A stretch of DNA of 64,000 bases from the NCBI RefSeq assembly GCF_003590145.2, contig NZ_CP060436.1, positions 530,001-594,000 of the forward strand, in the 5' to 3' direction. Of this stretch, positions 20,956 through 42,621 are shown piece by piece. The notes under the pieces were generated by a model, which made no database searches, was not told the origin of the DNA, and was given only the letters and a program-made list of their open reading frames with translations. The translations under genes were made by a program, and so were the position numbers. Numbering within the stretch: position 1 is the stretch's first letter; each line of letters begins with the position of its first letter. This DNA is from Pseudooceanicola algae. Its GTDB lineage: Bacteria > Pseudomonadota > Alphaproteobacteria > Rhodobacterales > Rhodobacteraceae.

Positions 20956-20973
20956 GCCTGCAGAACCCCTTAT

Positions 20974-21105
20974 GTTTCCCTGTAGACAAATATCCCCCGC
21001 GGAGCGTTGAGCCGCTTCAGCGGCTCAAATCTGCCCCGTTCAACGCCGTTTAAAGCGCCGCTGACGCGACGCTGCCTCCGGCGGGGATATTTGGAACAGG
21101 GAAAC
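20974..21105 (+). repeat. palindromic 3'-end element A (inverted pair of arms)
   Basis: The left arm at 20974-20997 reads GTTTCCCTGT, AGAC, AAATATCCCC. The right arm at 21083-21105 is its reverse complement with a 3-base variable core. The inverted similarity continues inward (CGCGGAGCG against CGCCGGAGGCAGCG). Inside, 21007-21028 is a perfect 10-bp stem (TTGAGCCGCT/AGCGGCTCAA) with a 2-base loop. It lies 18 bases after the ABC ATPase stop and 144 bases before tatA. It probably ends or processes the ATPase message. The same arm recurs at five other gene ends here. Confidence 0.75.
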
Positions 21106-21248
21106 CGAGGCGCCGCGCCTGAGAGGGCGGCGGTGGGGCGCAAATATACATCCTCCGGCGCATTGGTCCTTTCATCCCCTGTTGGAAGCCATTAGATACC
21201 CTTGGACAGAACCGGGCCAACCGCAGGCCTGGCAAGGGGAGACCTGAA

Positions 21249-21464
21249 ATGCTGAACAATATTGGCCTGCCGGGCCTTCTTTTGATCGCCGTCGTCGTGC
21301 TGGTCCTGTTTGGACGGGGCAAGATCTCGTCGCTGATGGGCGAAGTGGGCAAGGGGATCACCGCCTTCAAGAAGGGCGTGAGCGACAGCACTGAAGAACT
21401 CGAAGAAGAAAAGGCCGCTACCGCGCGTGATGTGACGCCGGAAGAGACCAAAGACAAGGTCTGA
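21249..21464 (+). CDS. tatA: Sec-independent protein translocase TatA
   Basis: Pore-forming component of the twin-arginine export system. The 71-aa protein has one N-terminal membrane helix (about residues 5-21), the FG hinge (FGRGK at 21-25), an amphipathic helix and a charged tail ending in a Glu/Lys-rich stretch. The ribosome site GGGGAGACC precedes the ATG. tatB begins 6 bases after the stop. Confidence 0.95.
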
Positions 21465-21470
21465 TCCCCC

Positions 21471-22031
21471 ATGTTCGGAATGGGTTGGACGGAGATCCTG
21501 GTGATCGGTGTGGTGGCCCTGGTGGTCGTCGGGCCGAAGGAACTGCCGGGATTGTTCCGAAATGTCGGCCAGTTCGTCGGTCGCGCACGCGGCATGGCCA
21601 AGGAATTTACCCGGGCCATGGAAGAGGCGGCCGATCAATCTGGCATGCGTGAGGCCAGCAATACGCTGAAGGGGCTTTCCAACCCCAAGGCCTTCGGTCT
21701 CGACAAGGTGCGGGAAGCGACGGATCTGACCAAATGGAAGCCCGAGAGCAGTACCGGCAAGCTGGCCGCTGAGCGCGCTGAAGCCTCGAAAAAGATCCAG
21801 GCCGCCGCCGCCAAGGCCGCGACCAACCGGATCGAAGGTGAAAAAGCCGCCGCCAGTGCCGCGACGACCGAATTGCACACACCCAAGATTTCCGGCCCCG
21901 CGCCTGCGGTCGCGCCTCAGGTTCAGCCGACCCCGCGCAGCGTCAACCGCCCGACGAAGAAACGCGAGATCCAGAAGGGGGCTGCCCCGCGCAGCGCCCG
22001 GACCCGCAACGCGCCGATCAGGAAAGACTGA
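21471..22031 (+). CDS. tatB: Sec-independent protein translocase TatB
   Basis: Component of the Tat receptor complex with TatC. The 186-aa product has the TatB N-terminus [20 protein letters not shown] with the membrane Glu (E8), followed by GPKELPG and an amphipathic helix. The long tail is rich in Ala, Lys, Pro and Arg and ends in a strongly basic segment. It sits between tatA and tatC with 6- and 2-base gaps, a clear operon. Confidence 0.94.
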
Positions 22032-22033
22032 GC

Positions 22034-22927
22034 ATGAGCAGCGAGACGGATGAGCTGGAAGACAGCTCCGCCCCCCTGATCGAACACCTTGCGGAATTGC
22101 GCACACGGCTTATCCACAGTGCCATTGCCTTCATCGTCGGCATGATCATCTGTTTCGCCGTATGGAACCCGATCTTCAACTTCCTGACCGAGCCGCTTTG
22201 CCGTGCACGTGGGGCGATGGGGGACGATTGCGGGTTGATCCTGATCAAGCTGCAAGAAGGTTTCTTCGTCGCGATTTCGATTTCGTTGCTGGGTGGGTTG
22301 TTCCTCAGTTTTCCATATATCTCTTACCAGATGTGGCGTTTCGTGGCGCCGGGGCTCTACAAGAACGAAAAGGGCGCCTTCCTGCCCTTTATGATCGCCT
22401 CGCCGTTCATGTTCATTCTCGGCGCGGCCTTTGCCTTTTACATTGTCACGCCGATGGCCTTCGACTTCTTCCTGGGGTTCCAGCAAGCAGGGTCCCTCAC
22501 GGGCGAGGCCGGTGTCGATGAAAGGGTCGCCTCGATTGCCTTCCAGGGCTCGGCGCAGGAATACCTGAACCTGACGATCAAGTTCATCGTGGCCTTCGGG
22601 CTATGCTTCCAGCTTCCGGTGCTGCTGACCCTCATGGGCAAGGCTGGCCTGGTCAGCGCCGAGGGCCTCGGCCAGATGCGCAAATACGCCGTGGTGGCCA
22701 TCCTGATCCTCGCCGCCGTGGTCACGCCGCCGGATGTGATCACCCAGATCATCCTCTTCGTGGTGGTATATGGCCTCTACGAGATTTCCATCTGGCTGGT
22801 GCGCCGCGTCGAACGTAAACGCGAAGCCGAATTGCGCGCCGAAGGCTATTACGACGACGACGAAGAGGCCGAGGAAACCGCCGTCGCTACTGCGGCCGAA
22901 CCGACGGTGAAGCCCAGGGATGACTGA
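22034..22927 (+). CDS. tatC: Sec-independent protein translocase TatC
   Basis: Polytopic receptor for twin-arginine signal peptides, 297 aa with six hydrophobic helices. Conserved cytoplasmic features are [13 protein letters not shown] at the N-terminus and the [18 protein letters not shown] loop. FCLQLPVLL-like ([15 protein letters not shown]) and TPPDVITQI segments match the fifth and sixth helices. The tail is acidic ([10 protein letters not shown]). The end overlaps the next gene by 8 bases. Confidence 0.96.
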
Positions 22928-23771
22928 TCCCTCGGATCTTGATCTGGCGCGTATTGCCGGGGCCCTCGAACGCATGGCCCCGGCACCGCTGGACGCGCCG
23001 GATTTCGAAACTTCTGATGCCTTCGTCTGGCAGACCGGCCCTGAACGTCTGACCCCTGTCGCCCGCGTCTCGCGCGTCGATCTGGGGTTGTTGCTTGGCG
23101 TAGACCGGGCGCGGGACATCCTGCTGGCCAATACCCTGCAATTCGCCCAAGGGCACGGCGCCAACAACGCGCTGCTCTGGGGCGCGCGCGGCATGGGGAA
23201 ATCATCTCTGGTCAAGGCAATCCACGCGGGTATCCTGGCTGAGGGCCATCCGCTCAAGATCGTCGAACTGCAACGCGAGGACCTGCCGACGGTCTCCCGG
23301 TTGATGCAGCTTCTGGCCGCCTCATCCCATCGCTTCCTGTTGTTCTGCGACGACCTCAGCTTTTCCAGCGACGATCAGCACTACAAATCCCTGAAGGCAG
23401 TGCTGGACGGTGGCATTTCCGGCCGCCCGGACAACGTGCTGTTCTACGCCACCTCCAACCGCCGTCACCTGATGCCCCGCGACATGATCGAAAACGAACG
23501 CGGATCGGCCATCAACCCCTCCGAAGCGGTCGAGGAAAAGGTATCGCTCTCGGATCGTTTCGGCCTCTGGCTCGGTTTCCATCCCTGCACCCAGGACGAT
23601 TACCTGGCGATGATCGATGGCTATTGTGCGCATTATGGCCTCAGCATCCCATCGGATGTCCTGCGGGCCGAGGCTATTGAATGGCAAGCCACCCGTGGCG
23701 CGCGTTCGGGCCGCGTCGCCTGGCAGTTCTTCACCGACCTCGCCGGCCGTCACGGCCTTCCAGTCAGCTGA
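22920..23771 (+). CDS. DUF815 family AAA-type ATPase
   Basis: A 283-aa ATPase of the DUF815 family. Walker A is GARGMGKSS (residues 88-96), Walker B is [11 protein letters not shown], and further AAA-like elements are [15 protein letters not shown] and [11 protein letters not shown]. The biochemical role of the family is not established. It overlaps tatC by 8 bases and is co-transcribed with the tat genes, an arrangement seen in related genomes. The gene ends 38 bases before element B. Confidence 0.88.
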
Positions 23772-23809
23772 AAACCGGACCGGCCGCCCGAAAGCGCCGC
23801 CCCGACCCC

Positions 23810-23872
23810 GTTTCCCTGTTCGAAATATCCCGGGTGAATTGAGGCCACAGGCCTCAAGAGGGCAGCGCCCTC
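23810..23872 (+). repeat. 3'-end element B (arm plus two hairpins)
   Basis: The arm GTTTCCCTGTT, CG, AAATATCCC (23810-23831) is followed by hairpin 1 (TTGAGGCC/GGCCTCAA, 23839-23857, loop ACA) and hairpin 2 (GAGGGC/GCCCTC, 23858-23872, loop AGC). It is in sense orientation after DUF815, between convergent DUF815 and nlpD. It is 59/63 identical to element D at 31711-31773. One stem pair is A-T here and G-C there, so pairing is preserved. No T-run follows. Confidence 0.78.
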
Positions 23873-23890
23873 CTGCTCCCTCCCGGGACC

Positions 23891-25195
23891 TCAGTTCAGA
23901 TAGCTCTCTGGATCCACCGAATCGAGGCCTTGGCGAACTTCGAAGTGTACGAAGTTCTCGCCATCACCGGGGATCTTCGCCAGCGCCTGCCCACGGCTGA
24001 CGCTGTCGCCCTTCTTCACGGTGATCTCGGTCACGTTGGAATAAAGCGTCAGCAGGTTGGCCGAATGCTTCACCACCACGACGCTCTGATTGTCGCTGTC
24101 CTGGATGATTGCCGCCACGGTCCCGGAATCTGCGGCCTTGACCGTGGTGCCGGGGGCCGCCGAGATGTCGATGCCGTCGTTGCGCCCCTTGGCATAGGTG
24201 CGGATGATGCTGCCCTGCACGGGATAGGCCAGTGCCCCGCCGGCGCTTTGCTGCTGCCCGGCGCCCAGATCCGGCGCGGTGGACGGGACGGCAGCGGCGT
24301 CGGCCAGGGGCGGCGGCGAATCTGCGGGCAGGGGAGCCGACGCGGAGGGCGGCAGCGGAGTCGGGCTGCCCGATCCCGGCGCGGTGGTCACGGCAGCCGC
24401 CTCCACAGTCGAGCCGTCCGAGGCGACCAGCGGGATGATCAGGAACTGACCTTCGCGAATGGTGAAATTGCTGTCGAGCCCGTTCCATTCCGCAAGCGAG
24501 CGGACCGATACCCCGTAAAGCCGCGCGATGGTATAGACGGTTTCGCCGCGCAGGACCTGATGCCGGATCGGCTCGGCGCCGACCTGGCGGGCGGGCTGTC
24601 CGGTGCTGGTAGCGGGCAGGGTGGCCACGGCGATTTCCCGGTCCGCCGCACGTTCGATGGCGGTCCCGGCCATGGTGGTCAGATCGACATCCTCGGGCGA
24701 CAGGATCGGGCCGGTGCCGGCCGCACCTGTGGCGGGCGATGGTTCGGCGACCCGCACCGGCAGGGCCAGTACAGCGCCGGCGCTCAGCGGGTCGGTGGGG
24801 CTGAGGCCGTTGTAGCGGGCCAGTTCACCGGCGCTCAGGCCAAGGCGGCTGGCGACATCGGCGACCGTGTCGCCCTGTCGCGCCACGGCGATCTGGTAAT
24901 TCGGATAGGAAATCACACCGCGATTGTCAGGTTGTGGCCGGGTCGCGCTGACACCGCGCGCCGCTTCGGCGGTGGAAAATCCGCCAAGCCCGCCGCGCAG
25001 ATCGCTGTCGACCGGGCCGCAGGCCGTCACCAGCCCCAGCATCCCGAGGGCCAGCCCCGTCGTGACGTATCTGCCCAGGTGCAGCGGCCTGTCGGCCGGG
25101 AACAGGGCAACTGCTTTGCGCCCTGCGCTCAGGGGGCGCGGGCCAGGGCCTGTCATCATCACAGGCAGGGGCTTGGGGCGGAAATTTCCGGTCAT
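23891..25195 (-). CDS. nlpD: NlpD-type LysM/M23 lipoprotein (murein hydrolase activator)
   Basis: Outer-membrane lipoprotein with two LysM domains (QIAVARQGDTVADVAS and IRHQVLRGETVYTIAR) and a C-terminal LytM/M23 domain, 434 aa. The lipobox VTAC lies about 58 residues from the chosen start. The M23 metal ligands are degenerate: HxGxD reads NDGID and HxH reads VHF. As in NlpD/EnvC, the domain should activate amidases rather than cut murein. The linker between LysM and M23 is Pro/Ala/Ser-rich. The start MTGNFRPKPL follows GAGGACC; a shorter start is possible. It is the third gene of surE-pcm-nlpD. Confidence 0.88.
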   Translation of the reverse strand: MTGNFRPKPLPVMMTGPGPRPLSAGRKAVALFPADRPLHLGRYVTTGLALGMLGLVTACGPVDSDLRGGLGGFSTAEAARGVSATRPQPDNRGVISYPNYQIAVARQGDTVADVASRLGLSAGELARYNGLSPTDPLSAGAVLALPVRVAEPSPATGAAGTGPILSPEDVDLTTMAGTAIERAADREIAVATLPATSTGQPARQVGAEPIRHQVLRGETVYTIARLYGVSVRSLAEWNGLDSNFTIREGQFLIIPLVASDGSTVEAAAVTTAPGSGSPTPLPPSASAPLPADSPPPLADAAAVPSTAPDLGAGQQQSAGGALAYPVQGSIIRTYAKGRNDGIDISAAPGTTVKAADSGTVAAIIQDSDNQSVVVVKHSANLLTLYSNVTEITVKKGDSVSRGQALAKIPGDGENFVHFEVRQGLDSVDPESYLN

Positions 25196-25279
25196 CTGTT
25201 CGGTCCTCGTCCCGGCCACCGCGATCCGCGACGGCATCTGGACCCGGTCTTGGCTGCCGGGTCTTGGTCTGGTTGGGCC

Positions 25280-25939
25280 TCAGCTATCCTTGCCCATGCC
25301 TTCCAGCAAGGGCACGAAACGCACGGGGCGCAATTCTTCGTATTCCAGCCGACTATCCGCATGCTTCAGCACGCGGATCAGGCTTTGCACCGTATCGGAC
25401 TGGCCGACCGGCAGAACCATGATACCGCCGGGCTTCAGTTGCGCCAAGAGCGGGCCGGGCGGGTCTTCGGCCGCCGCGGTCACGAGAATGCGATCGAAGG
25501 GGGCCTGGTCGGGCAGCCCGAGGGTGCCATCGGCGGCAAAGGTGGTCACATTCACCAACCCCAGCCCGTCGAGCACCGTCTTGGCCTCGCGCGCAAGGCG
25601 GGTATGGCGGTCCACGGTATAGACCCGCCGGGCGAGGTGGCTCAGCACCGCCGCCTGGTAGCCCGATCCCGTACCGATCTCCATCACCTTGTCCCGCGGC
25701 TGGACCTCCAGCGCCTGGGTCATCAGGCCGACCACGGAGGGCTGCGAAATCGTCTGTCCACAGGCGATTGGCAGGGGCATGTCCTCATAGGCGCGCTCGG
25801 CGAAGATGCCGCGCACGAAATGGCCGCGATCGACCTTTTCCATTGCCTCCAGCACGCGCTTTTCCGTCACCCCGCGCGACCGCAGGGCGAAGAGGAACTG
25901 CATCTTGCGTTCCGCGATGGTTGGGGCCTCTTCGGTCAT
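25280..25939 (-). CDS. pcm: protein-L-isoaspartate O-methyltransferase
   Basis: Repairs isoaspartyl residues in aged proteins using S-adenosylmethionine. The 219-aa protein shows the family block [20 protein letters not shown] (substrate side) and the SAM loop [14 protein letters not shown]. The start [10 protein letters not shown] at 25939 gives the usual length. It sits between surE and nlpD, the conserved stationary-phase maintenance order also seen in enterobacteria. Confidence 0.95.
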
Positions 25940-26090
25940 GGGCTGGGGGTCATGCCTTGTTGTTGCTGTCGCCGGATCGTCCGGCAGTCCTGCCCGGATC
26001 GCCGGACGGCTGGACCGGATCATCGCCCGGCACCTGCATCAAGGATGGGCGAATCCGCGCCTATGGAAAAGGACGGATTGCACCCTTGGG

Positions 26091-26873
26091 TCATTCAATC
26101 GCCCGTAGTGGCTCAAGTAGGTCACTTGCGGTCAGATCTGCCCGCATCGGGGTGATCGAGACATAGCCCTCGAGGTTGACCGCCACGTCGGTGCCCGGTG
26201 CCGTGGCCGCGCGTTGGTCGCCGCCCTTGGCCCATAGGAACCGCCGCCCCGAGGGGCTTTCCTGCGGCAGCACCGAAAAACTGGTGCCCTGGCGAAAGCC
26301 CTGGGGCACGACGCGGCGGCCCTTGACCCCGGACAGGGGGCAGGGCGGGAAGTTGATGTTGTAGAAGGTCGCATAGGGGTGGCTTTGATCCAGCTCGGTG
26401 GCCAGGATCGCGCGGATCACCTCGGCGCCATGGGCGGCAGCGGTTTCGAAAGGATCGTCAAGCCCGGCATTGCCGGGGCCCCAGAACTGCGACAGGGCCA
26501 TGGCCTTCAGCCCCTGCAGCGCGCCTTCCATGGCGCCGCCGAGGGTGCCGGAATAGACCGCGTTTTCACCCGAATTGTTGCCCCTGTTGACGCCGGACAG
26601 CACCAGGTCGACCTGCTTGCCCTTCAGCACGTCATGGATGCCTGCAAGAACGCAATCGGCGGGCGACCCTTCGGCGGCAAAGCGGCGGGGCGCCATTTCC
26701 GAGATCATCGTGGGATGGGTGTAGGAGATGCAATGCGCGACGCCGGATTGTTCGAAGGCGGGGGCGACGACCCAGACTTCTCCGTCCGGTCCCGCAATCT
26801 CGGCTGCAATCTTTTCCAGGGTCTTCAGACCCGGTGCGTTGATGCCGTCGTCATTGGTGATGAGAATGCGCAT
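26091..26873 (-). CDS. surE: 5'-nucleotidase SurE
   Basis: Metal-dependent phosphatase acting on nucleoside 5'- and 3'-monophosphates, 260 aa. The N-terminus [15 protein letters not shown] carries the metal ligands D8 and D9, and [20 protein letters not shown] holds the conserved Asn/Ser ligands. An AAGGAG ribosome site is placed ideally before the ATG at 26873. pcm begins 151 bases downstream. The upstream side holds the tandem 71-bp repeat. Confidence 0.96.
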
Positions 26874-26952
26874 GAAGGCTCCTTTTTCCGGCGTGTGCCC
26901 TGCATAGGTGAAGGGGGTTTGAGGGTCCAGACCCGGACCGGGCTTGCCCGGC

Positions 26953-26973
26953 AAAAGGTCCGGTGGACCTTTT
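26953..26973 (-). terminator. second terminator hairpin (repeat copy 1)
   Basis: Identical 9-bp hairpin to that at 27037-27057, 84 bases further along the minus-strand transcript and 80 bases before the surE start. Together they form a tandem terminator isolating surE-pcm-nlpD from upstream transcription. Confidence 0.68.
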
Positions 26974-27036
26974 GGGGTCTGGACGGGCGGAGCCCCGGGA
27001 GGTGTGGTCGGGCGGGAAAGGAAATGCTTGCCCGGC

Positions 27037-27057
27037 AAAAGGTCCGGTGGACCTTTT
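27037..27057 (-). terminator. terminator hairpin of the AEC gene (repeat copy 2)
   Basis: A perfect 9-bp stem, AAAAGGTCC paired with GGACCTTTT around a 3-base loop, 41 bases after the stop of the minus-strand AEC transporter. The four terminal Ts on either strand make it a symmetric intrinsic terminator. Confidence 0.7.
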
Positions 27058-27097
27058 GGGGTCTGGACGGGCGGAGCCCCGGAAGGTTTGGTCGGGA

Positions 27098-28033
27098 CTA
27101 GCTGGCGAAACCGGCCAGCAGGGCGAGCAGGGTCATCACCAGTGGCAGTGCGATCAGGGCCAGGACGGTCTGGGCCGCGGTCAGACCTGCCATCAGCGGG
27201 GCGTCGCCACCCAATTGCCGGGCGAGGATATAGGCGGACGAAGCGGTCGGCAGAGCCTGGAACAGCAGCGCCGTGGTCAGGGCCAGCCCTTCGAGGCCAA
27301 TGAGCCGGGCCACGATCAAAGTGATCAGCGGCAGAGCCAGGAACTTGATTGCCGAGGAGGCGGCAACGGGGCCGATCCATTGCCGTGCCTTGTCGAAATC
27401 AAGTGCGGCCCCGACGCAGAGCAGGCCAAGAGGCAGCGAGGCCGCGCCAAGTGTATGCAGGGCGGGTTCGATCCCGGCCGGAACGGAAAGCCCGAACAGT
27501 TGAAAGCAGATCCCGGCCAGCGACGCCATGAGCAAGGGGTTGCGCAGGAGTTGCAGGAGCACACTGCGCAGGGTGAGGCGGGCGGTGGCGAAGCGGGCAA
27601 AGACCAGCACGCTGAGGATATTGACCGTTGGTACCAGCGCCGCATTGCAGAGCGCGGCAAGGGCGAGGCCGATGGGGCCGAACAACCCGGTGGCAAGTGT
27701 GACGCCGACGTAGTTGTTGAAACGGATGCTGGCCTGGAAGACCGAGGTGAAGGCCGGGCCGTCGACGCGGAAGGCGGGCCTGAGCATGACCACCGCGAGG
27801 GCCGTGAGGCTGGTCGAGATCACCAGCGTTGCCGCCAGACGGGCGACGGGAATAGCACCGAGGTCCGCCGTGGCGAGCCCGTTGAAGAACAGGCAGGGCA
27901 GCAGGATGTAATAGCCGAGGCGTTCGGCCTGGGGCCAGAAGGCTTCGGCCAGAAAGCGGCGGCGGCGCAGGACCTGACCCAGCCCGATGATGAGCACGAT
28001 AGGAAGCAGCGCAAGCAGGATGGCGGCTGTCAT
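27098..28033 (-). CDS. AEC family (auxin efflux carrier) transporter
   Basis: A 311-aa membrane protein with about ten hydrophobic helices in two five-helix halves, typical of the AEC/PIN-like bacterial transporters. The repeated pattern is a central Asn/Pro-containing unwound helix ([16 protein letters not shown] in the first half, [17 protein letters not shown] in the second). The substrate is unknown; bacterial members often move small organic anions. It lies after a long gap downstream of the SDR gene and is followed by the tandem terminator repeat. Confidence 0.83.
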
Positions 28034-28172
28034 GGGCGGTCACCGGGCTGTGGTTGGCGGTCCCGACGGGCGGGGCGTCTGGCCGGGCAGGGAGTGAGGT
28101 CTTCGGCCTTGATAACAGGCCTGCCAGCGGGAGGAAGGGCTGGTCGCGGAGGCTTTGGTGGTCAGGGGCGCG

Positions 28173-28229
28173 GGGGCTCTGCCCCGTCTCCGTACCGGAG
28201 ACTCCCCGGGATATTTGGAACAGGGAAAC
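28173..28229 (-). repeat. 3'-end element C (arm plus two hairpins)
   Basis: Read on the minus strand, the arm GTTTCCCTGTT, CC, AAATATCCC (28229-28208) begins 16 bases after the stop of the SDR gene. It is followed by hairpin 1 (GTCTCCG/CGGAGAC, forward 28186-28202) and hairpin 2 (GGGGC/GCCCC, 28173-28185). The arm is nearly identical to elements B and D, but the hairpin 1 sequence is unrelated while its position and form are kept. Confidence 0.72.
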
Positions 28230-28245
28230 GGACGGGGTCGAGGAC

Positions 28246-28899
28246 TCAGGCGATTTCGGCGAGAAGGCGGCGGGCTTCTTCGGCGCAGGGCGTGAGGGTG
28301 GCGCGGTTTTCGCCCGGGTAGAAGCGGGCGCGCAGGGCCGTGGGCATGGGGCGCGGCGCAAGAAGATGAACGCGCGGGCCGGTGTTGATCGTCTCGGCGG
28401 CCCAGGAGCGGGCCATGGCGATCTGGGCGGATTTGGTGGCGCCGTAGCTGGCGCAGAACTTGGCGCCCGGCGCGGTGGCGTCGTCGAAGAACAGTGCCTT
28501 GCCCTGGCGGCCGAGGAGCGGGGCGACGTAGGGTATGAGGTGGCCCATGGCGATGGTGTTGGTGGCCAGGGATTTCTGCCAATCCTTGGCGTCGACATGA
28601 TCGGCCGGCGTCAGGGGGGCTGCATGGATCGCCGTATGCGCCCAGAGCGCGATGGTGCCCCAGCGGTCGAAGATCGAGCGGCAGAGCTGGGCCATCGCCT
28701 CTGGCGTGGTGATGTCCATGGGCGCGAGGGTGGCCTGGCCGCCGGCGCTTTTGATGCGGTCGTCCAGTTCTTCCAGCGCGCCGATGGTGCGGGCGACGGC
28801 GACGACATGATGGCTGGGGGCCAGTTCCAGCGCCAGGGCGGCGCCGAGGCCGCGCGAGGCACCGGTGATAAGGGCGACGGGTTTGTTCTGCTCGGTCAT
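28246..28899 (-). CDS. short-chain dehydrogenase/reductase family protein
   Basis: A 217-aa SDR with TGASRGLG (NAD(P)-binding, residues 13-20) and the YGATK active-site pair (YxxxK). The position of the catalytic serine, 13 residues before the tyrosine, is Asp in LFFDDATAPG, and NAG reads HTA. It is therefore an atypical member, and the substrate is unknown. It is separated from the AEC gene by about 210 bases holding element C. Confidence 0.8.
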   Translation of the reverse strand: MTEQNKPVALITGASRGLGAALALELAPSHHVVAVARTIGALEELDDRIKSAGGQATLAPMDITTPEAMAQLCRSIFDRWGTIALWAHTAIHAAPLTPADHVDAKDWQKSLATNTIAMGHLIPYVAPLLGRQGKALFFDDATAPGAKFCASYGATKSAQIAMARSWAAETINTGPRVHLLAPRPMPTALRARFYPGENRATLTPCAEEARRLLAEIA

Positions 28900-28991
28900 G
28901 GCGGCGTCTTGCGAGGTTTTTCGCAGCCGGTCAAGGGACCATCCGTCGCGGTTGCGGATGTTCGATCCGGGAAGGCCGGGGGGGGGCGGGC

Positions 28992-29339
28992 CTAGTGGCC
29001 GGGCATGACGAGGAATTCTTCCTTGCCGCCGCGTTGCAGTCGAACCTGGCCGTCGCCGACCGCCACCACCTGGGGCCCGCCAAGGCCGAGGCGGTCGCCG
29101 GTGCTTACCTTGCGGATGCGCCCGTTGGACATGCGCAGGAAAGCTTCGGGGCCGCGCGGGCTGGTCAGGGTCCCGACAAGGGTAATGCCGCCGCCGGGAA
29201 GTTGGCCACGCTCGGTTGCATTGTCTTCGGTGAAGGAAAGGTTGGTGCCCATGGGATTCGCTGTCTTGCTGCCTGTTGGGCGCAGGCTTGCCACGGGGAC
29301 CGACCGGGCGAAAGGGATGTGGAAATCATCGCTGGGCAA
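28992..29339 (-). CDS. PilP/GspC-like periplasmic domain protein
   Basis: Up to 115 aa. The second half reads as a small beta-rich domain (ITLVGTLTSPRGPEAFLRMSNG, then KVSTGDRLGLGGPQVVAVGDGQV, then LQRGGKEEFLVMP) like the domain shared by PilP and GspC. It has no signal peptide or membrane helix in this frame. The longest frame begins with TTG at 29339; an ATG at residue 30 would leave only the domain. The ribosome site is poor for both. No pilus or secretion genes are adjacent, so function is open. Confidence 0.5.
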   Translation of the reverse strand: MPSDDFHIPFARSVPVASLRPTGSKTANPMGTNLSFTEDNATERGQLPGGGITLVGTLTSPRGPEAFLRMSNGRIRKVSTGDRLGLGGPQVVAVGDGQVRLQRGGKEEFLVMPGH

Positions 29340-29362
29340 GCAGCGGGGGATTGCCGGGAGGC

Positions 29363-29941
29363 CTAGCCCGCAGAAATATGGGGGCGGATGTCGTCGCCTG
29401 CCGCGGCGTAGAGGTCGAGCAGATCGTCGAAGGAGATCCCGTCGGTGATGGCCTCTGAGAGCGGTCCGGCGAGAGCAGTGGCGCGGGGGCGTTCGGCGCC
29501 CGCCGGCATAAGGCGCAGGGCGGTGCCTTCGTCCTCGGGGAAGCCGGGCAGGGCATTGGCGAGCAGGCCTTCGATGGCTTCCGGGCCCCTGTCATGGGGC
29601 GTTGCGCCGTCTTGCCCGGTGCTCTCGATCCAGGCGTAGAAATCCGCAGGCGCGACCTGCACCCAGGGCGCAAGATAGAGAATTTCGCCGGTGCCGCGCA
29701 GGGGCAGGGCAATGACCGCGCGCAGGTAACGTGCCTCGCCGATCCGGCAGAGCTCGGCGGAAAGACGGTCCGCGCCGGCCTCGAGCAGCGGCTGATCCGC
29801 CGGGCGGGGGCCATGCGGCCAGGCGTCGGGCGCGTCGAAGCCGAGGTCGTAGAGACCCGAAAAGGCGCGCCCGTCGATCGGGCTGCGGAAATCGGGATCG
29901 TTGAAGCGGCGCCAGCGGGCGTCGAGGGACAGAAGAGACAT
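29363..29941 (-). CDS. DUF2199-like protein
   Basis: A 192-aa protein. The N-terminal block RWRRFNDPDFRSPIDGRAFSGLYDLGFDAPDAWPHG matches the form of DUF2199 proteins, except that the paired cysteines many members have at its start are replaced (no CxxC). The rest is acidic and unremarkable. Function unknown. It ends 23 bases before the PilP-like gene, and starts 37 bases after purF, so all three may be co-transcribed. Confidence 0.65.
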   Translation of the reverse strand: MSLLSLDARWRRFNDPDFRSPIDGRAFSGLYDLGFDAPDAWPHGPRPADQPLLEAGADRLSAELCRIGEARYLRAVIALPLRGTGEILYLAPWVQVAPADFYAWIESTGQDGATPHDRGPEAIEGLLANALPGFPEDEGTALRLMPAGAERPRATALAGPLSEAITDGISFDDLLDLYAAAGDDIRPHISAG

Positions 29942-29978
29942 GCAGGGCCTTTGGGGGCTGGGGCGGTGAAGCGGAGCC

Positions 29979-31478
29979 TTATTCGGTGGCCTTCAGTTCG
30001 AAACCCTTTTCGATCATGTCGGAGGGTTCCACCGGATATTCCCCCGAGAAGCAGGCGTCGCAGTATTGCGGGCAGGCGTTGTCGCGCCCTTCCGCTTCGC
30101 CCGCAGCACGATAGAGGCCGTCGAGCGAGACGAATCGCAGGCTGTCAACCCTGAGGTGATCGCGCATCTCGTCTTCGGTCATGGTCGCGGCCAGCAGCTT
30201 TTCCCGCTGCGGCGTGTCGACACCGTAGAAGCACGGCCAGGCTGTGGGCGGAGAGGCAATGCGAAAGTGGACCTCGGCCGCACCGGCGTCGAGGATCATT
30301 TCCTTGATCTTGCGCGAGGTTGTGCCGCGGACCACAGAGTCGTCGACCAGCACCACGCGTTTGCCCTTGATGAGCGCCCGGTTGACGTTCAGCTTCAGGC
30401 GCACGCCCATGTTGCGGATCTGTTCGGTGGGCTCGATGAAGGTCCGGCCCATGTACTGGTTGCGGATGATCCCCATGGCGTAGGGGATGCCGCTTTCCTG
30501 GCTGAAGCCGATGGCCGCCGGGGTGCCGCTGTCGGGGACAGGGCAGACGAGGTCGGCCTCGACCGGGGCTTCGCGGGCCAGTTCCACGCCGATTCGGCGG
30601 CGGGTGTCATAGACCGACTTTCCACCGATGATAGAATCGGGGCGCGAGAAATAGACATGCTCGAAGATGCAGAATTTCGACGGCTGGCTGCGGAAGGGGC
30701 GGCGGCTGTCGACCTTGCCATCCGAGGTGATGACGACCATTTCGCCCGGCTCGATCTCGCGCACGAATTCGGCGCCGATGATGTCGAGGGCACAGGTTTC
30801 CGAGGACAGGCACCAGCCATCCGCGACCTTGCCCAGCACCAGGGGCCGCACGCCGAGTGGGTCGCGGACCCCGATCAGCTTGGTCCGGGTCATGGCGACG
30901 ACGGAGAAGGCGCCTTCGACCCGGCGCAGGGCGTCTTCCATGCGTTCGGGGACGCTTTTCTGCAGGCTGCGGGCCATCAGGTGGATGATGCATTCGCTGT
31001 CCGAGGAGCTTTGAAAGATCGAGCCGCGCTCGATCAGCTCGCGCCGCAGGGCGATGGCATTGGTAATGTTGCCGTTATGCGCGATCGCCGCGCCGCCGCG
31101 GGAAAATTCGCCGAAGAAGGGCTGTACGTCGCGGATCGCGGCGGCCTTGGACCCGGCAGTGGAATAGCGCACATGGCCGATGGCCAGCGGGCCGGGCAGG
31201 GTTTCCATCACGTCCTGGGAAGTGAAGTTGTCCCGCACATAGCCGAAACGACGGGCAGAATTGAACCCGGCGTCGGGATGGTAGCAGACGATACCGCCGG
31301 CCTCCTGTCCGCGATGCTGCAACGCATGCAGGCCGAGGGCGACGAAATTCGAGGCATCGGTCACGCCGATGACGCCGAAGATCCCGCATTCTTCCTTGAG
31401 CTTGTCGTCATCGAAAGGATGTGCGTGGAACCGAGGAGCTTGGTCCAGGGAAAGCGAGGGCGCAAGGCGTGGTTTCAC
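29979..31478 (-). CDS. purF: amidophosphoribosyltransferase
   Basis: First committed step of purine synthesis, making phosphoribosylamine from PRPP and glutamine. The catalytic Cys is in EECGIFG (residue 31 from the chosen start), so a short propeptide is removed to expose it. Other marks are LQHRGQE, GHVRYSTAGS, the PRPP loop VVLVDDSVVRGTTS and the C-terminal CDACFSGEYP. I chose GTG at 31478 because AGGAG lies 9 bases upstream; a TTG at 31517 is an alternative that adds 13 residues. It lies downstream of cvpA, a common pairing. Confidence 0.93.
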   Translation of the reverse strand: MKPRLAPSLSLDQAPRFHAHPFDDDKLKEECGIFGVIGVTDASNFVALGLHALQHRGQEAGGIVCYHPDAGFNSARRFGYVRDNFTSQDVMETLPGPLAIGHVRYSTAGSKAAAIRDVQPFFGEFSRGGAAIAHNGNITNAIALRRELIERGSIFQSSSDSECIIHLMARSLQKSVPERMEDALRRVEGAFSVVAMTRTKLIGVRDPLGVRPLVLGKVADGWCLSSETCALDIIGAEFVREIEPGEMVVITSDGKVDSRRPFRSQPSKFCIFEHVYFSRPDSIIGGKSVYDTRRRIGVELAREAPVEADLVCPVPDSGTPAAIGFSQESGIPYAMGIIRNQYMGRTFIEPTEQIRNMGVRLKLNVNRALIKGKRVVLVDDSVVRGTTSRKIKEMILDAGAAEVHFRIASPPTAWPCFYGVDTPQREKLLAATMTEDEMRDHLRVDSLRFVSLDGLYRAAGEAEGRDNACPQYCDACFSGEYPVEPSDMIEKGFELKATE

Positions 31479-31648
31479 GGCTGGCCGCTCCTGGCAGGGA
31501 TGCGTTGGCTTGGGCAAGGAAATGCTCCGACTCCGGTCATGTCCGACGGGCCCCTCATACGCGCCTTGAGGGGGAGTGTCACGGGGCGATCATGACAGAA
31601 TGGTGAACTATGGCGAATGACTATCGGGCGGGCAAAAGAATGGCTGCC

Positions 31649-31659
31649 GGGGGGGGGGG
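31649..31659 (+). repeat. poly-G tract (11 G)
   Basis: Eleven consecutive G on the plus strand (C on the purF sense strand), about 170 bases upstream of the purF start and downstream of element D. Such runs slip during replication and are also prone to sequencing error. The gap between cvpA and purF (31479-31833) holds no gene. Confidence 0.85.
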
Positions 31660-31710
31660 CTGTGGCCGAAGGCATGGGGCAGAACGCCTGCAAAAGCGGC
31701 AGGGTTGGCG

Positions 31711-31773
31711 GAGGGCGCTGCCCTCTTGGGGCCGGTGGCCCCAATTCACCCGGGATATTTTGAACAGGGAAAC
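31711..31773 (-). repeat. 3'-end element D (arm plus two hairpins)
   Basis: On the minus strand the arm GTTTCCCTGTT, CA, AAATATCCC (31773-31752) is followed by hairpin 1 (TTGGGGCC/GGCCCCAA, loop ACC) and hairpin 2 (GAGGGC/GCCCTC, loop AGC). It starts 60 bases after the cvpA stop in sense orientation. Compared with element B there are four differences in 63 positions, two of which are the two partners of one stem base pair. Confidence 0.78.
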
Positions 31774-31780
31774 CCTGGCG

Positions 31781-31807
31781 TGGTGCGCGCGGGCAAGGCG
31801 CGCACCA
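31781..31807 (-). terminator. hairpin after cvpA
   Basis: A perfect 10-bp stem, TGGTGCGCGC with GCGCGCACCA, and a 7-base loop, 26 bases after the cvpA stop and immediately before element D. It is very stable but lacks a T-run, so it may work with element D as a compound 3' end. Confidence 0.5.
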
Positions 31808-31833
31808 CGAGGGCCGGGTATCAGGTGCCGGAG

Positions 31834-32409
31834 TCAGGTGCCGGAGACCGGGGTGGTGGCGGTGCAGGTGCCGGTCAGGTCCTCGTATTTCGCGGTAATC
31901 CAGCCGAGGGCGCGTTCCGGGTCGTTGTCTTCGATCTGGCCGGTCATGCGGGCAAAGACCTGGGCGGACCGGGAATTGTCGACCATGGGGACGCTTTGGG
32001 CGCTGAGGACCGTGGAATAGACGAAGAAGGCAATGGCGACGAGCAGGATGCCGCGGGCGACGCCGAAGAGGAAGCCAGCCGCCTGGTCAATGCCGCCGAG
32101 GATCGAACGCTGCACGACCGAAGAGAAGAGCGGCGTGAAGAGCGAGGCGACGGCGAGAGCGATGGCGAAAAGCACGCCGAAGGAGGCGATGACCGAGAGT
32201 TCGCAGCTGTCCGACAGGAAGTCACCGACATAGGGGATTTCCTGCACCAGGGGCATGACCGAAGGGGCGAAGACGAAGGCCAGCACCGCTGCGACGACCC
32301 AGCCGGCGATGGCGAGCACCTCGCGCATGACGCCGCGCGAATAGGCCAGCAGCGCCGACAGGAGAATGACCGCGCCAACAATGGCGTCGATAAGTGTGAA
32401 ACCGTCCAT
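31834..32409 (-). CDS. cvpA: CvpA family membrane protein
   Basis: Inner-membrane protein of 191 aa with four hydrophobic helices (DAIVGAVILLSALLAYSRG first) and a soluble tail of about 50 residues. The SRGVMREVLAIAGWV segment after helix 1 is the family signature. It is required for colicin V production in E. coli and has links to envelope homeostasis; the mechanism is not known. It stands upstream of purF, as in many proteobacteria, and 25 bases downstream of radA. Confidence 0.9.
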   Translation of the reverse strand: MDGFTLIDAIVGAVILLSALLAYSRGVMREVLAIAGWVVAAVLAFVFAPSVMPLVQEIPYVGDFLSDSCELSVIASFGVLFAIALAVASLFTPLFSSVVQRSILGGIDQAAGFLFGVARGILLVAIAFFVYSTVLSAQSVPMVDNSRSAQVFARMTGQIEDNDPERALGWITAKYEDLTGTCTATTPVSGT

Positions 32410-32434
32410 AGACCTGTCTTCTCCTTAGGCGCGC

Positions 32435-33802
32435 TTACCCGGCGCCGAAAATCTCGCCCACAAAGCTGGTCAGATCGCCCATTCGGGTGAGCTTCAGCCC
32501 CTTTGCCCCGCCCGGCTTGCCACCTTCTGGAGCGATTGCGGATGAAAAACCAAGTTTCTCCGCTTCTTTCAACCTGTTTTCCGTCTGGCCCACCGGTCGC
32601 AGGGCGCCGGAGAGGGAAATCTCGCCAAAGACGACCGTGTCGGCGGGCAATGCGCTGTCTTCGCGCGCCGAAAGCAGGGCGGCAGCGACGGCAAGGTCGG
32701 CGGCGGGTTCGGAAATCTTCATGCCGCCGGCCACGTTGAGGTAGACATCGAGCCCTGCGAAGGGAATTCCGCAGCGGCTTTCGAGGACTGCGAGGATCAT
32801 CGCGAGCCGCCCGCCATCCCAGCCGACGGTGGACCGGCGCGGTTGGGAATGCGGTGAGGGGGCGACGAGGGCCTGGATTTCGACCAGCACGGGGCGGGTG
32901 CCTTCGATGCCGGCAAAGACCACCGATCCGGGGCTGGGCTTGCCGCGTTCCGACAGGAACAGGGCGGAGGGATTGGAGACCTGTGAGAGCCCGCTGCCGG
33001 TCATTTCGAAGACGCCGATTTCGTCGGCCGGGCCGAAGCGGTTCTTGACCGCGCGCAGGATGCGGAACTGGTGACCGCGTTCGCCTTCGAAATAGAGCAC
33101 GGTGTCGACCATGTGTTCGACCACGCGGGGGCCGGCGATCTGGCCGTCCTTGGTGACATGGCCGACAAGGATGACGGCGGCACCCCGACGCTTGGCAAAG
33201 GTCGTCAGCTCGTGCGCGGCAGCGCGGACCTGGCTGACCGAGCCGGGTGCGCTGTCGACGGTGTCGCTCCACATGGTCTGGATCGAATCGATCACCACCA
33301 GGTCGGGGCGTTCCTCGTCCAGGGTGGTCAGGATATTGCGCAGGGCCGTGTCGGCGCCAAGGCGGACCGGCGATTGCGCCAGGCCAAGGCGATCGGCGCG
33401 CATGCGGATCTGGGCCGAGGCCTCTTCGCCGGAAATGTAGAAGGTCTTGAGCCCGCCGTTGGCAAAGGCCGCTGCCGCCTGCAGCAGCAGGGTGGATTTG
33501 CCGATGCCGGGATCGCCGCCCACCAGCACGGCCGAAGCCGGGACCAGTCCGCCGCCCAGAACGCGGTCGAGCTCCGGCATGCCGGATGCGGTGCGGGGCG
33601 GTGGGGCCTCTTTCGAGGACAGATCCGTCAGGGCAATCCGCGATCCGCGCGCCGCGCCGAGGGTCTTGCCCGAGGGGCCCGTGGAGAGCGGCACATCTTC
33701 CGAGACGGTGTTCCAGGCCCCGCAGGCATCGCAGCGCCCCGACCACTTGGTCGAAGTGGCCCCGCAGGCTGAACAGGAAAAGGTGGTTACGGGTTTTGCC
33801 AT
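32435..33802 (-). CDS. radA: DNA repair protein RadA
   Basis: Recombination helicase acting on branched DNA, 455 aa. It has a zinc finger C10-x2-C13-x10-C24-x2-C27, Walker A GGDPGIGKST, the RadA-specific KNRFG motif (VKNRFGPADEIG) and a C-terminal Lon-like domain (GGMKISEPAADLAVAAAL). The ATG at 33802 places the zinc finger at the N-terminus as in the family; the frame extends 36 codons upstream without support. Transcription probably runs on into cvpA. Confidence 0.96.
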   Translation of the reverse strand: MAKPVTTFSCSACGATSTKWSGRCDACGAWNTVSEDVPLSTGPSGKTLGAARGSRIALTDLSSKEAPPPRTASGMPELDRVLGGGLVPASAVLVGGDPGIGKSTLLLQAAAAFANGGLKTFYISGEEASAQIRMRADRLGLAQSPVRLGADTALRNILTTLDEERPDLVVIDSIQTMWSDTVDSAPGSVSQVRAAAHELTTFAKRRGAAVILVGHVTKDGQIAGPRVVEHMVDTVLYFEGERGHQFRILRAVKNRFGPADEIGVFEMTGSGLSQVSNPSALFLSERGKPSPGSVVFAGIEGTRPVLVEIQALVAPSPHSQPRRSTVGWDGGRLAMILAVLESRCGIPFAGLDVYLNVAGGMKISEPAADLAVAAALLSAREDSALPADTVVFGEISLSGALRPVGQTENRLKEAEKLGFSSAIAPEGGKPGGAKGLKLTRMGDLTSFVGEIFGAG

Positions 33803-33949
33803 GGGCCGCTTTTGCCTGCGCGGGCCGATGCGGTCAATCGGGGATCGGTGCTGCCGGGGCGGCAGGACAGGGCGAAGGCGGGCGGGAGTGTCGGTCCCTT
33901 TGCAAATCAAGGCACAGTTGTTTGCAAATCCCTGTCGACCTCGGCGAAT

Positions 33950-34720: not shown

Positions 34721-34808
34721 TGGCAGTCCTTTCGGGCAAAGGGGCTGGCCGGCGGAATTATGCCGGTCCCCAGAAAAACCTTAACCCGCCCCTAACGGTT
34801 CCCAAAAT

Positions 34809-35300: not shown

Positions 35301-35302
35301 CT

Positions 35303-39886: not shown

Positions 39887-41371
39887 TCAGTAATCCTCGG
39901 CGCCTTGCTGCCAGGGTTTGACGAGGTTGCCGAACCGGGTGAAACGTCCCTCGAAGCTCAGCTCGATGGACCCGATGGGACCGTGCCGCTGCTTGCCGAT
40001 GATGACCTCTGCCTTGCCATGCAGGCGTTCCATACGCTGCTGCCAGGCGGCGATTTCATCCAGCTTGTCGTCGGAAGGTTTCTCGCGTTCGACGTAATAT
40101 TCCTCGCGGAAGACGAACATGACGACGTCGGCATCCTGCTCGATCGAGCCGGATTCGCGCAGATCGCTCAGCTGCGGACGCTTGTCTTCACGGTTCTCGA
40201 CCTGACGCGACAACTGCGACAGGGCGATGACCGGGATCTGGAGCTCCTTTGCGATGGCCTTCAATCCCATCGAGATCTCGGCGATCTCGTTCACACGGTT
40301 CTCGGCGGTGCCACGCACCAGTTGCAGGTAGTCGACGATCAGCACGTCAAGCCCATGGGTCCGCTTCAGACGCCGCGCGCGGGCGGATAGCTGGGCGATG
40401 GGCAGGGCAGGGGTGTCGTCGATGAACAGCGGGCAGCTTTCCAGATCGCGGGCGGCCTGGGCAAAGCGGCGGAATTCCTCTTCGGTCATGTCGCCCTTGC
40501 GGATCTGTTCGGACGGCACCTCGGAGGCTTCCGACAGGATCCGCGCGGCCAGCTGCTCGGCGCTCATTTCCAGCGAATAGAAGCCGACGACGCCGCCTTC
40601 GACCGCCCCGACCGATCCATCCGGGAGGGTCCCGCGCTTGTAGGCCTTGGCGATATTGAAAGCGAGGTTGGTCGCCAGCGACGTCTTGCCCATGGACGGG
40701 CGCCCGGCAAGGATAAGCAGGTCCGACTTGTGCAGCCCGCCCAGCTTGCGGTCCATATCCACCAGCCCGGTCGAGACACCGGCCAGCCCGCCTTCGCGCA
40801 TATAGGCGGCATTCGCGGTCTGCACGGCTTCGGTCACGGCCTTGAGGAACGACACAAAGCCCGAATCCGCCTGACCCTGTTCGGACAGCTTGTAGAGCTT
40901 CTGTTCCGCCTCGACGATCTGCTCCTTGGGATCGCTGTCCACATCCACCTTGGTGGCGCGGGCCGAAATATCCTGGCCCAGCCGGATCAGCTCGCGCCGC
41001 ACCGCCAGATCATAGATCATCTGGGCATAGTCGCGCACCGCGTAGGACGAAATCGCCGCCCCGGCCAGCTTGGCCAGGTAAGCCGGTCCGCCCAGTTCCT
41101 TCAGGCCTTCGTCTTCGGCCAGAAAGGCCTTCAACGTCACCGGCGAAGCTAGATTGTTCTTCGCGATCCGCGCGGCGGCGGTTTCGAAGATGCGGGCGTG
41201 GACCGGATCATAGAAGTGATGCGCGCCGATGATGGCGGCCACCCGGTCATAGACATCGTTATTGGTCAGGATGGCGCCCAGAAGCTGCTGCTCGGCTTCG
41301 ACGGAATGGGGCATGCTGCCCGCCATCTGCACATCCGTGCCGGTCGCGTTGAAAACCGATGCGTCGTTCAT
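39887..41371 (-). CDS. dnaB: replicative DNA helicase
   Basis: Hexameric helicase that unwinds the replication fork, 494 aa. The N-terminal domain begins with VEAEQQLLGAILTN; the RecA-like domain has Walker A AGRPSMGKTS near residue 223 and VLIVDYLQL as Walker B, then LSQLSRQVE and the SGSIEQDADVV block. The ATG at 41371 gives the family's usual short N-terminal extension. A tight cluster of DnaA-box-like sequences lies about 230 bases upstream. Confidence 0.96.
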   Translation of the reverse strand: MNDASVFNATGTDVQMAGSMPHSVEAEQQLLGAILTNNDVYDRVAAIIGAHHFYDPVHARIFETAAARIAKNNLASPVTLKAFLAEDEGLKELGGPAYLAKLAGAAISSYAVRDYAQMIYDLAVRRELIRLGQDISARATKVDVDSDPKEQIVEAEQKLYKLSEQGQADSGFVSFLKAVTEAVQTANAAYMREGGLAGVSTGLVDMDRKLGGLHKSDLLILAGRPSMGKTSLATNLAFNIAKAYKRGTLPDGSVGAVEGGVVGFYSLEMSAEQLAARILSEASEVPSEQIRKGDMTEEEFRRFAQAARDLESCPLFIDDTPALPIAQLSARARRLKRTHGLDVLIVDYLQLVRGTAENRVNEIAEISMGLKAIAKELQIPVIALSQLSRQVENREDKRPQLSDLRESGSIEQDADVVMFVFREEYYVEREKPSDDKLDEIAAWQQRMERLHGKAEVIIGKQRHGPIGSIELSFEGRFTRFGNLVKPWQQGAEDY

Positions 41372-41816
41372 TCTGCCTATCCCTCGATGCGGGGCGTGCC
41401 TTGTCGGAACGTCCCGGCCCGCGATGATGCCCCGCGGGTCGTTTTTGCCTGAACGGAGGAAGACTCTATCGGACCTCAGCACCTGTCCGATGCCGCGTGA
41501 TACTTCGAATGAAGCCGTCCGGATAGTGGATCAGTCCAAAGCCCCCGTGAGCAAGCTACATACAGAACGACCCCTGTCGCAGGCAAATGGGATATCCTGT
41601 GGATAACCTGTGGTTAACCTGTGTATGAGACGCTGTCCTCAAGATGATGTGGCAAAAGCGCCCCTTGCGTCAACATCTGCTGCGTCCAAGGCAGGAAACG
41701 GCCGAGCCGGATCGCGGGAAATCGCCGCATCGCCGCCTATTCGAAGCCAGCGCAGGCATCCTGGGGTCGCCCTCTGTCCGCTTGGGCGGTTTCAGGCAGG
41801 AATGCCGAGCCGATTC
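41372..41816. other. spacer between pyrE end and dnaB start
   Basis: A 445-base gap that should contain the dnaB promoter (minus strand) and the 3' region of the gene above. No gene is convincing in it. The main structured signal is the DnaA-box-like triplet at 41598-41628. No T-run terminator was seen. Confidence 0.5.
41598..41628 (-). promoter_or_regulatory. three DnaA-box-like 9-mers at 11-bp spacing
   Basis: On the minus strand the 9-mers read TTATCCACA (41606-41598, identical to the E. coli consensus), TTAACCACA (41617-41609, one mismatch) and TCATACACA (41628-41620, two mismatches). The spacing is exactly 11 bp each time, so all three face the same side of the helix. They lie 226 bases upstream of dnaB. 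They could bind DnaA and couple dnaB expression to initiation. Confidence 0.6.
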
Positions 41817-42494
41817 TCAGTCCTTGCGTGCATCCTGCCAGGCCCGCGGCGCCTTCAGGAAGGCTTCGACCTCATCCAGCGTTTCCATGGAGAAAGTCGT
41901 CCGGGTCCGGGCCTCGGCCAGTACATCCCACCAGGTGCAAAGATGATGCAGGGTGATGCCATGGGCACCAAGGGAGTCCTCGACCCCGTCGAATATCCCG
42001 TAGTAGAAGATCACCGCCGTATGACCGCATTCGGCCCCGGTGTCGCGAATGGCATCGACAAAGGACAGCTTGGAACCGCCATCGGTCGTCAGGTCCTCTA
42101 CCAGCAATACACGCTCGCCTTCGGTCATGACCCCTTCGATCCGGGCATTGCGTCCATAGCCCTTGGGCTTCTTGCGCACATAGGTCATCGGAAGCGCCAT
42201 CCGCTCGGCCACCAGCGCGGCAAAGGGGATGCCGGCCGTCTCGCCCCCGGCAATGTTGTCAAAGGCCTCCAGTCCGGCGTTTCGCATGACCGTGCAGGCC
42301 AGGAAGTCCATCAGCGTCGACCGGATGCGCGGATAGGAGATCAGCTTGCGGCAATCGATATAGGTGGGCGACGGCAGACCCGAAGCCAGGACAAAAGGCG
42401 TGTCGGCATTGAAATGTACCGCCTCGATATCAAGCAACATGGCGGCACTCAGCCGCGCGATTTCTTCCCGGGAGGGATAGGAACTGGGGATCAT
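41817..42494 (-). CDS. pyrE: orotate phosphoribosyltransferase
   Basis: Joins orotate and PRPP to form OMP in pyrimidine synthesis. The 225-aa product has the PRPP-binding loop [14 protein letters not shown] and the YIDCRKLI and [10 protein letters not shown] segments of the family. The start ATG at 42494 has AGAGGA 8 bases upstream; an in-frame ATG at 42521 would begin inside repeat element E. It follows pyrC across the long palindrome of element E. Confidence 0.94.
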
Positions 42495-42521
42495 TGCGCT
42501 GTCCTCTTGAAAAGTCTGCAT

Positions 42522-42621
42522 GTTTCCCTGTTGTGAAATATCCCCGCCGGAGGCATGGGGCGGCCAAAGGGCGCGCCATTTGCTTTCAAGCCTCCGGCGG
42601 GGATATTTTCAACAGGGAAAC
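42522..42621 (-). repeat. palindromic 3'-end element E (32-bp inverted arms)
   Basis: The arms at 42522-42554 and 42590-42621 pair over about 32 bp with a single-base bulge: GTTTCCCTGTTG, TG or A, AAATATCCCC, then GCCGGAGGC, against the reverse complement. The loop is about 35 bases. On the pyrC transcript the first arm starts 3 bases after the pyrC stop. It would form an extremely stable hairpin between pyrC and pyrE. Confidence 0.85.

What the first reader, a model, noticed from the sequence alone, without database searches (positions are those of the whole stretch)
20974..42621. Six related gene-end elements with a conserved single-stranded arm
Elements A, B, C, D and E share GTTTCCCTGTT, 2-4 variable bases, AAATATCCC; F has the related AAATACTCC arm. 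Each has at least one arm in sense orientation 3-60 bases behind a stop codon. A and E are full inverted pairs (100-132 bp), B, C and D half-elements. The arm is more conserved than the hairpins, which is odd for plain terminators, where the stem matters and sequence does not. The arm may therefore be a recognition sequence. Neisseria DNA uptake sequences also sit as inverted pairs in terminators; that parallel is only an idea.
Basis: partly seen in the sequence, partly recalled or inferred. Interest (0 to 1): 0.75.

Follow-up and report, generated by a model that had tools for sequence, protein, structure and literature searches.

The report
Gene-end repeats with lineage-specific recognition arms
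A marine bacterium and many of its relatives carry small hairpin elements between genes, each beginning with the same fixed letters around a free three-letter gap, as if some unknown factor reads them; related bacteria use other letters in the same design.

Summary
The arm is bipartite, GTTTCCCTGT-N3-AAATATCC. The own genome holds 105 copies at up to 3 mismatches, with no reversed-control match. I examined 104: 103 lie outside predicted genes. With a 3-base gap, 97 are perfect, 2 have one mismatch and none has 2 or 3, while the gap varies freely. Each arm leads into one of two hairpin tails: Type I (G-run, covarying hairpin, second G-run usually of equal length, C-run) or Type II (CGCCGGAGGC, often plus hairpin). 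The design runs through the family (Type II core in 280 of 394 genomes; 0 of 285 Alphaproteobacteria drawn outside it), but arm letters change between lineages. A second subfamily reads TCATCTGGC-N3-AAATACTC here and TCATCTTGC-N3-AAATACTT in Pseudooceanicola spongiae, without overlap in the stretches held. Sites turn over: 5 of 19 fully comparable sites are shared with P. spongiae. Orientation relative to tandem genes is near balanced; no U-tract terminator was flagged at elements A-D; no Y1 (RAYT-type) transposase was found in 22 genus genomes. Best reading: REP-like gene-end elements whose arm is read by an unidentified, lineage-specific factor. The recognition idea is supported; the Neisseria parallel is not. 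Reader and function are not shown.

The parts
20974..21105 (.). Element A: tail-to-tail inverted pair. Arms 20974-20995(+) and 21084-21105(-), Type II tails, behind an ABC-transporter ATPase gene (stop 20955)
23810..23872 (+). Element B, Type I: arm 23810-23830, G-run, hairpin 1 (23839-23857), hairpin 2 (23858-23872); between DUF815 gene (stop 23771) and a convergent LysM/M23 gene (stop 23891)
28173..28229 (-). Element C, Type I (4/4/4 runs), behind a short-chain dehydrogenase gene (stop 28246)
31711..31773 (-). Element D, Type I, behind cvpA-like gene (stop 31834) and upstream of a purF-like gene; 94% the same as B over 64 bases (arms 23810-23873 and 31710-31773 of inverted repeat I1)
42522..42621 (.). 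Element E: tail-to-tail inverted pair, arms 42522-42543(+) and 42601-42621(-), Type II tails, between an amidohydrolase gene (stop 42625) and a phosphoribosyltransferase gene
54073..54133 (-). Element F, second subfamily: arm TCACCTGGC-N3-AAATACTC (54114-54133) with Type I tail (5-base G-runs)

Best explanation
These are members of a Rhodobacteraceae-wide family of REP-like gene-end elements. Each has a bipartite arm (9-10 fixed bases, 3 free, then AAATA plus 3 fixed) followed on the same strand by a hairpin tail of one of two designs. Shown by sequence: extreme arm constraint around a free gap, covariation of hairpin 1, matched G-run lengths, both orientations relative to genes, subfamilies whose arm letters differ by lineage, and turnover of sites. 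Inferred: an unidentified trans-acting factor reads the arm sequence-specifically, probably together with the folded strand, one specificity per subfamily; reader and arms change together between lineages; intact copies spread to new gene ends and copies that lose the arm do not persist. At the gene end the element probably acts in either direction, as a bound boundary or a 3'-end structure; which of these is open.
For: Reversed control 0 genome-wide. 97 perfect, 2 one-mismatch, 0 with two or three mismatches around a variable gap; second subfamily equally pure (own 12 perfect + 2 one-mismatch, P. spongiae 29 + 1) with a two-position difference between the species and no overlap in the stretches held. 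103 of 104 outside predicted genes; convergent gaps enriched, divergent depleted. Hairpin 1 covariation 32 cells against 10 shuffled, 0/500; equal G-runs 63 of 73 against 28 shuffled, recurring in other species. GNA triloops on the arm strand 70 against 2. Arms without either tail in both relatives at own sites 3410923 and 3044563. Family-wide Type II core, 280 of 394 genomes, 0 of 285 outside.
Against: No reader found; no expression or binding data. Rapid site turnover (14 of 19 not shared) is odd for a host function. Near-balanced orientation (30 to 24) is odd for an RNA signal. Ortholog conservation of arms (2 of 468 positions) is biased because those loci were found by the arm. Copies are related, so run-length, loop and mismatch counts are not independent. 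Arm pairing with the first G-run holds only in subfamily 1. The closest relative by two genes (G018) shows no element in 138 kb, so the system is dispensable.
Confidence: 0.5

Rival explanations
1. Purely selfish REPIN-like mobile repeats: an enzyme recognises the folded arm strand and copies elements into new intergenic places; gene ends are simply where insertion is tolerated.
For: Unshared sites, lineage-specific expansions with near-constant gap letters in one genome (G402), inverted pairs of both kinds, depletion between divergent promoters.
Against: No Y1 transposase in 22 of 22 genus genomes, while the control search rings in 5 of 14 genomes. Almost no decayed copies. Gap and hairpin 1 differ between copies while the arm does not, which plain copying would not give.
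Confidence: 0.27
2. Bidirectional transcription terminators or mRNA 3'-end hairpins, with the arm a by-product.
For: Position behind stop codons in either orientation and strong hairpins on both strands.
Against: The arm is far more conserved than the stems; of six terminator-like sites flagged in 20900-33000 none is at A, B, C or D (E and F not scanned); arms occur without tails.
Confidence: 0.12
3. DNA uptake sequences like those of Neisseria or Pasteurellaceae.
For: Species dialects, inverted pairs at gene ends, intergenic location, both orientations.
Against: About one copy per 36-39 kb, at least two subfamilies per genome and no one-mismatch halo, this version absent from 20 of 22 genus genomes. 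Typical uptake-sequence densities are recalled, not looked up here.
Confidence: 0.04

Closest known systems
REP / REPIN elements with RAYT transposases (GTAG superfamily)
   Same: Short intergenic repeats, about a hundred copies, several sequence classes per genome, inverted pairs, hairpins on one strand, lineage-specific sequences (passages of PMC3116915, PMC2817692, PMC3733652)
   Different: No GTAG head, no Y1/RAYT gene found in the genus, 18-base arm outside the hairpin, almost no decayed singlets
CGTC-tagged palindromic repeats of Alphaproteobacteria
   Same: Alphaproteobacterial palindromic repeats reported to lack a dedicated transposase (passages of PMC3733652)
   Different: They carry a CGTC head, an 8-9 bp stem and usually a CCA tail; the elements here have a 10-N3-8 arm and a different tail
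DNA uptake sequences (DUS/USS)
   Same: Dialects, inverted pairs at gene ends
   Different: Recalled to be far denser and to include many one-mismatch copies; no attached covarying two-hairpin tail known to me
BIME / ERIC / RIME mosaic repeats
   Same: Intergenic mosaic modules at gene ends, pairs in both arrangements (recalled)
   Different: Not searched by sequence; no modular arm-dialect system of this kind recalled for them

Membership tests
REP/REPIN (GTAG, RAYT) | GT(A/G)G head on the palindrome | tested here: not met
   Printed sequences of 104 own elements share the arm, not a GTAG head (by eye)
REP/REPIN (GTAG, RAYT) | RAYT (Y1_Tnp, PF01797) gene in the genome | tested here: not met
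   0 of 22 genus genomes; control rings in 5 of 14
REP/REPIN (GTAG, RAYT) | Intergenic, inverted pairs as the main unit | tested here: inconclusive
   Intergenic yes (103 of 104), but only 11 of 93 sites hold a pair, 7 of them back-to-back
CGTC repeats | CGTC head, 8-9 bp stem, CCA tail | tested here: not met
   No such head in the element sequences printed (by eye); features from passages of PMC3733652
MITE | Terminal inverted repeats with target duplication at filled sites | tested here: inconclusive
   Unshared sites found, but flanking intergenic DNA does not align between the species held
Intrinsic terminator | GC stem followed directly by a U-tract | tested here: not met
   A, B, C, D not among the six terminator-like sites of 20900-33000; E and F not scanned
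DNA uptake sequence | Preferential uptake of DNA with the motif | not testable with these tools
   Density and mismatch spectrum do not fit
Known Rfam RNA family | Match at the gathering score | tested here: not met
   0 in the window; with E up to 1 in 20900-42700 two weak matches, one of them mir-960 over element E (27.4 bits against gathering 100)

The most novel reading that the evidence does not exclude
An undescribed recognition system of Rhodobacteraceae: paralogous, fast-evolving readers, each matched to its own arm (9-10 bases, N3, AAATA plus 3), act on a folded single strand at gene ends. All copies of a subfamily change specificity together between species, and two equal G-runs competing for one C-run (or forming a triplex with it) give the tail two exclusive states.
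Probability: 0.2. Interest if true: 0.85.

Novelty: new variant of a known kind. Interest (0 to 1): 0.62.

Why it matters
It also warns that such elements can be taken for plain terminators.

Tried and rejected
A general stem between the arm and the first G-run: the RNA fold of one copy suggested it. It beats shuffled arms in subfamily 1 (own -10.9 against -6.9 kcal/mol) but is worse than shuffled arms in subfamily 2 (own -5.5 against -6.7), so I dropped it as a general feature.

A guide or trans gene holding the 10-mer away from the elements: in 661 kb of own chromosome the only copy of the 10-mer not followed by the 8-mer or its AAGTATCC variant is at 3365296, in a conserved non-coding stretch between a back-to-back pair of arms. 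No guide RNA was shown. The rest of the genome was not searched for this.

Overrepresented 10-mers in 100 kb each of G001, G006 and G016: no element-like word stood out; the core search later found elements in G006, G012 and G002.

Virus carriage: this arm has one match in viral contigs, and 64 contigs hold the Type II core; I looked only at the arm letters.

Close-strain test for insertion borders: the one other genus tried has one genome held. Literature: searches by motif letters and by topic listed nothing that describes the element (listings only; one search listed 40 of 918 papers and 12 of 821, so they are not exhaustive). Passages were seen of PMC2864571, PMC8632094, PMC3733652, PMC3116915 and PMC2817692. 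The library holds open-licence papers only.
Full report
What is there. The window holds six exact copies of GTTTCCCTGTT-N2-4-AAATATCCC and none in 100 shuffles. The own genome (4.09 Mb, 4 contigs) holds 69 exact copies and none of the reversed control, and 105 with up to 3 mismatches at a 2-base gap after GTTTCCCTGTT, again with 0 controls (100 of the 105 are listed). One listed copy lies on contig C2 and none on C3 or C4. If the five unlisted copies are all on the chromosome, that is 1 against 10 expected on the three small contigs (Poisson p = 0.0005).

Exact form of the arm. I held 661,083 bases of the chromosome in 57 pieces, most chosen around arms, called genes with a simple codon model, and found 105 arms with up to 4 mismatches. 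I dropped the one with 4 and examined 104. Not all copies were held: at least 1235378, 2023652, 670692 and the C2 copy are missing from these 104. Of the 99 with a 3-base gap, every position of GTTTCCCTGT and AAATATCC is invariant except in two copies with AAGTATCC, while the gap varies. The 18-base pattern with a 3-base gap gives 97 perfect, 2 one-mismatch and no two- or three-mismatch copies; at 4, 5 and 6 mismatches there are 7, 21 and 144 against 0, 6 and 62 for the reversed control. So decayed copies are rare, though the 4-6 mismatch excess is unexplained.

Place. 103 of 104 arms lie outside predicted genes (one overlaps a predicted gene by two thirds) although 86% of the pieces is predicted coding. 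Convergent gaps are enriched (39 of 104 against 68 of 383 gaps of 60 bases or more, Fisher p = 5e-5) and divergent ones depleted (11 of 104 against 91 of 383, p = 0.003). Arms with a sense gene upstream (69) start a median 31 bases behind its stop, but 24 of 54 arms between tandem genes point against the genes. Of 93 sites, eleven hold two arms within 400 bases: four tail-to-tail like A and E, seven back-to-back.

Tails. By parsing, 75 of 104 are Type I, 27 Type II and 2 other. In Type I the first and second G-run have equal length in 63 of 73 parsed cases (two could not be parsed) against a shuffle mean of 28 and maximum of 42 in 10,000; the C-run equals the first G-run in 52 of 73 (mean 27, maximum 42). 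A looser search gives equal G-runs in 69 of 79 own, 27 of 34 P. sediminis, 39 of 44 P. spongiae and 6 of 10 other-genus elements; the last does not exceed its best shuffle. Related copies are not independent. Hairpin 1 covaries: on 15 equal-length sequences, 32 cells with changes on both sides against 10 in shuffles (0 of 500), and 96% paired against 43-55% when slid; hairpin 2 does not vary in that set. Of 176 elements, 165 have a clear hairpin 1; 114 of these have triloops, 70 of them GNA on the arm strand and 2 the complementary form. GT mismatches exceed AC 31 to 12, with 45 others. Both point to folding of the arm strand; neither decides RNA or DNA. DNA and RNA folds of three sequences, one of them the opposite strand, are all moderately more stable than shuffles (z -1.8 to -3.2), so stability alone does not pick a strand.

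Relatives. This arm occurs in 2 of 22 genus genomes and, with one copy, in 1 other genome of a 394-genome family draw. The named scan gave 100 stretches: 83 from Pseudooceanicola spongiae HQ09 and P. sediminis CY03 and 17 single matches in unrelated genomes. Other arms use the same design: TTTC(A/T)TCTG...AAATATCC in 18 of 129 family genomes with no control match, and the Type II core AAATAYNYCCGCCGGAGGC in 280 of 394 family genomes with no control match. A class draw of 289 gave matches in 2 of its 4 family members and 0 of 285 others. One genome (G402) carries several subfamilies at once, and 14 of its 30 fetched copies, by eye, sit back-to-back with a different arm. The relative closest by two genes, G018, showed no element in 138 kb.

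Dialect difference. In the held 661 kb the own second subfamily is TCATCTGGC-N3-AAATACTC (12 perfect, 2 one-mismatch). In 880 kb of P. spongiae it is TCATCTTGC-N3-AAATACTT (29 perfect, 1 one-mismatch), and neither version appears in the other's held stretches with 0 or 1 mismatch. Subfamily 1 is the same in both. Of 15 own subfamily 2 copies, only one (3218621, placed by one flank) has the P. spongiae version near the matching place; one other has subfamily 1 there. So the difference may reflect separate expansion rather than change in place.

Turnover and constraint. Against 880 kb of P. spongiae not chosen by these sites (80 kb of it for synteny with the window), 35 of 93 own sites had a flank placed and 19 had both; 5 of the 19 carry the same arm and 14 do not; of the 16 one-flank sites, 1 does. 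Reading the gaps by eye, three of the 14 hold the second P. spongiae dialect, two with the same tail type (553810, 2829982), and one a core-like remnant (2537696). In the first 170 bases behind the DUF815 gene, seven of 22 genus genomes show an element of the same architecture with different arms and two more the Type II core in reverse; behind cvpA, only G000 and a diverged form in G001 do, of 21 (by eye). At sites shared with P. spongiae, 2 of 468 arm positions differ against 30 of 66 gap positions; for P. sediminis the raw table gives 25 of 576 against 37 of 75, inflated by five loose chance matches left in. Those loci were found by the arm, so this comparison is biased towards intact arms. 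Arms with neither tail occur in both relatives at own sites 3410923 and 3044563, and a third such pair (L204, L223) looks alike in both relatives.

Interpretation. Copying and gene conversion would carry the gap with the arm, so a fixed arm around a free gap speaks for sequence-specific recognition acting on each copy. Site turnover and lineage-specific expansion speak for spreading. I therefore call the element REP-like in lifestyle but do not file it as REP: two defining features were tested and not met, no Y1 transposase in 22 genus genomes and no GTAG head (by eye). Elements A-D were not flagged as intrinsic terminators, the window has no Rfam match at gathering score, and density and purity do not fit uptake sequences. 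What reads the arm, and whether the hairpins work as RNA or DNA, is not shown.

Noticed in passing
L101:5231-5407 (own chromosome about 3365231-3365407): Between a back-to-back pair of arms lies a conserved non-coding stretch (core GGTCATCGG..CC..CCTGTACC) also present in P. spongiae, P. sediminis, G002 and another genus (L125); only one weak sub-threshold Rfam match in the region. A candidate small RNA or regulatory element.
   Followed up: partly
window 26942-27096: Two 71-base direct repeats, 97% identical, 84 bases apart, inside a stretch rich in inverted sequence.
   Followed up: no
L383-L446 (viral contigs): 64 contigs called viral carry the Type II core, many 13-15 kb long with the core about 1.4 kb from one end; they may be gene-transfer-agent clusters, which I did not check.
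   Followed up: no
L352-L381 (G402): Different arm subfamilies sit head to head (GGGGATATTT..GAAGAAAG CCCTTTCATACTGG..AAATATCCCC) in 14 of 30 fetched copies, by eye.
   Followed up: partly
L076-L080 (G021): A tandem repeat of GACTGGGACT type, 24-25 occurrences of its 10-mers in the 100 kb sampled.
   Followed up: no
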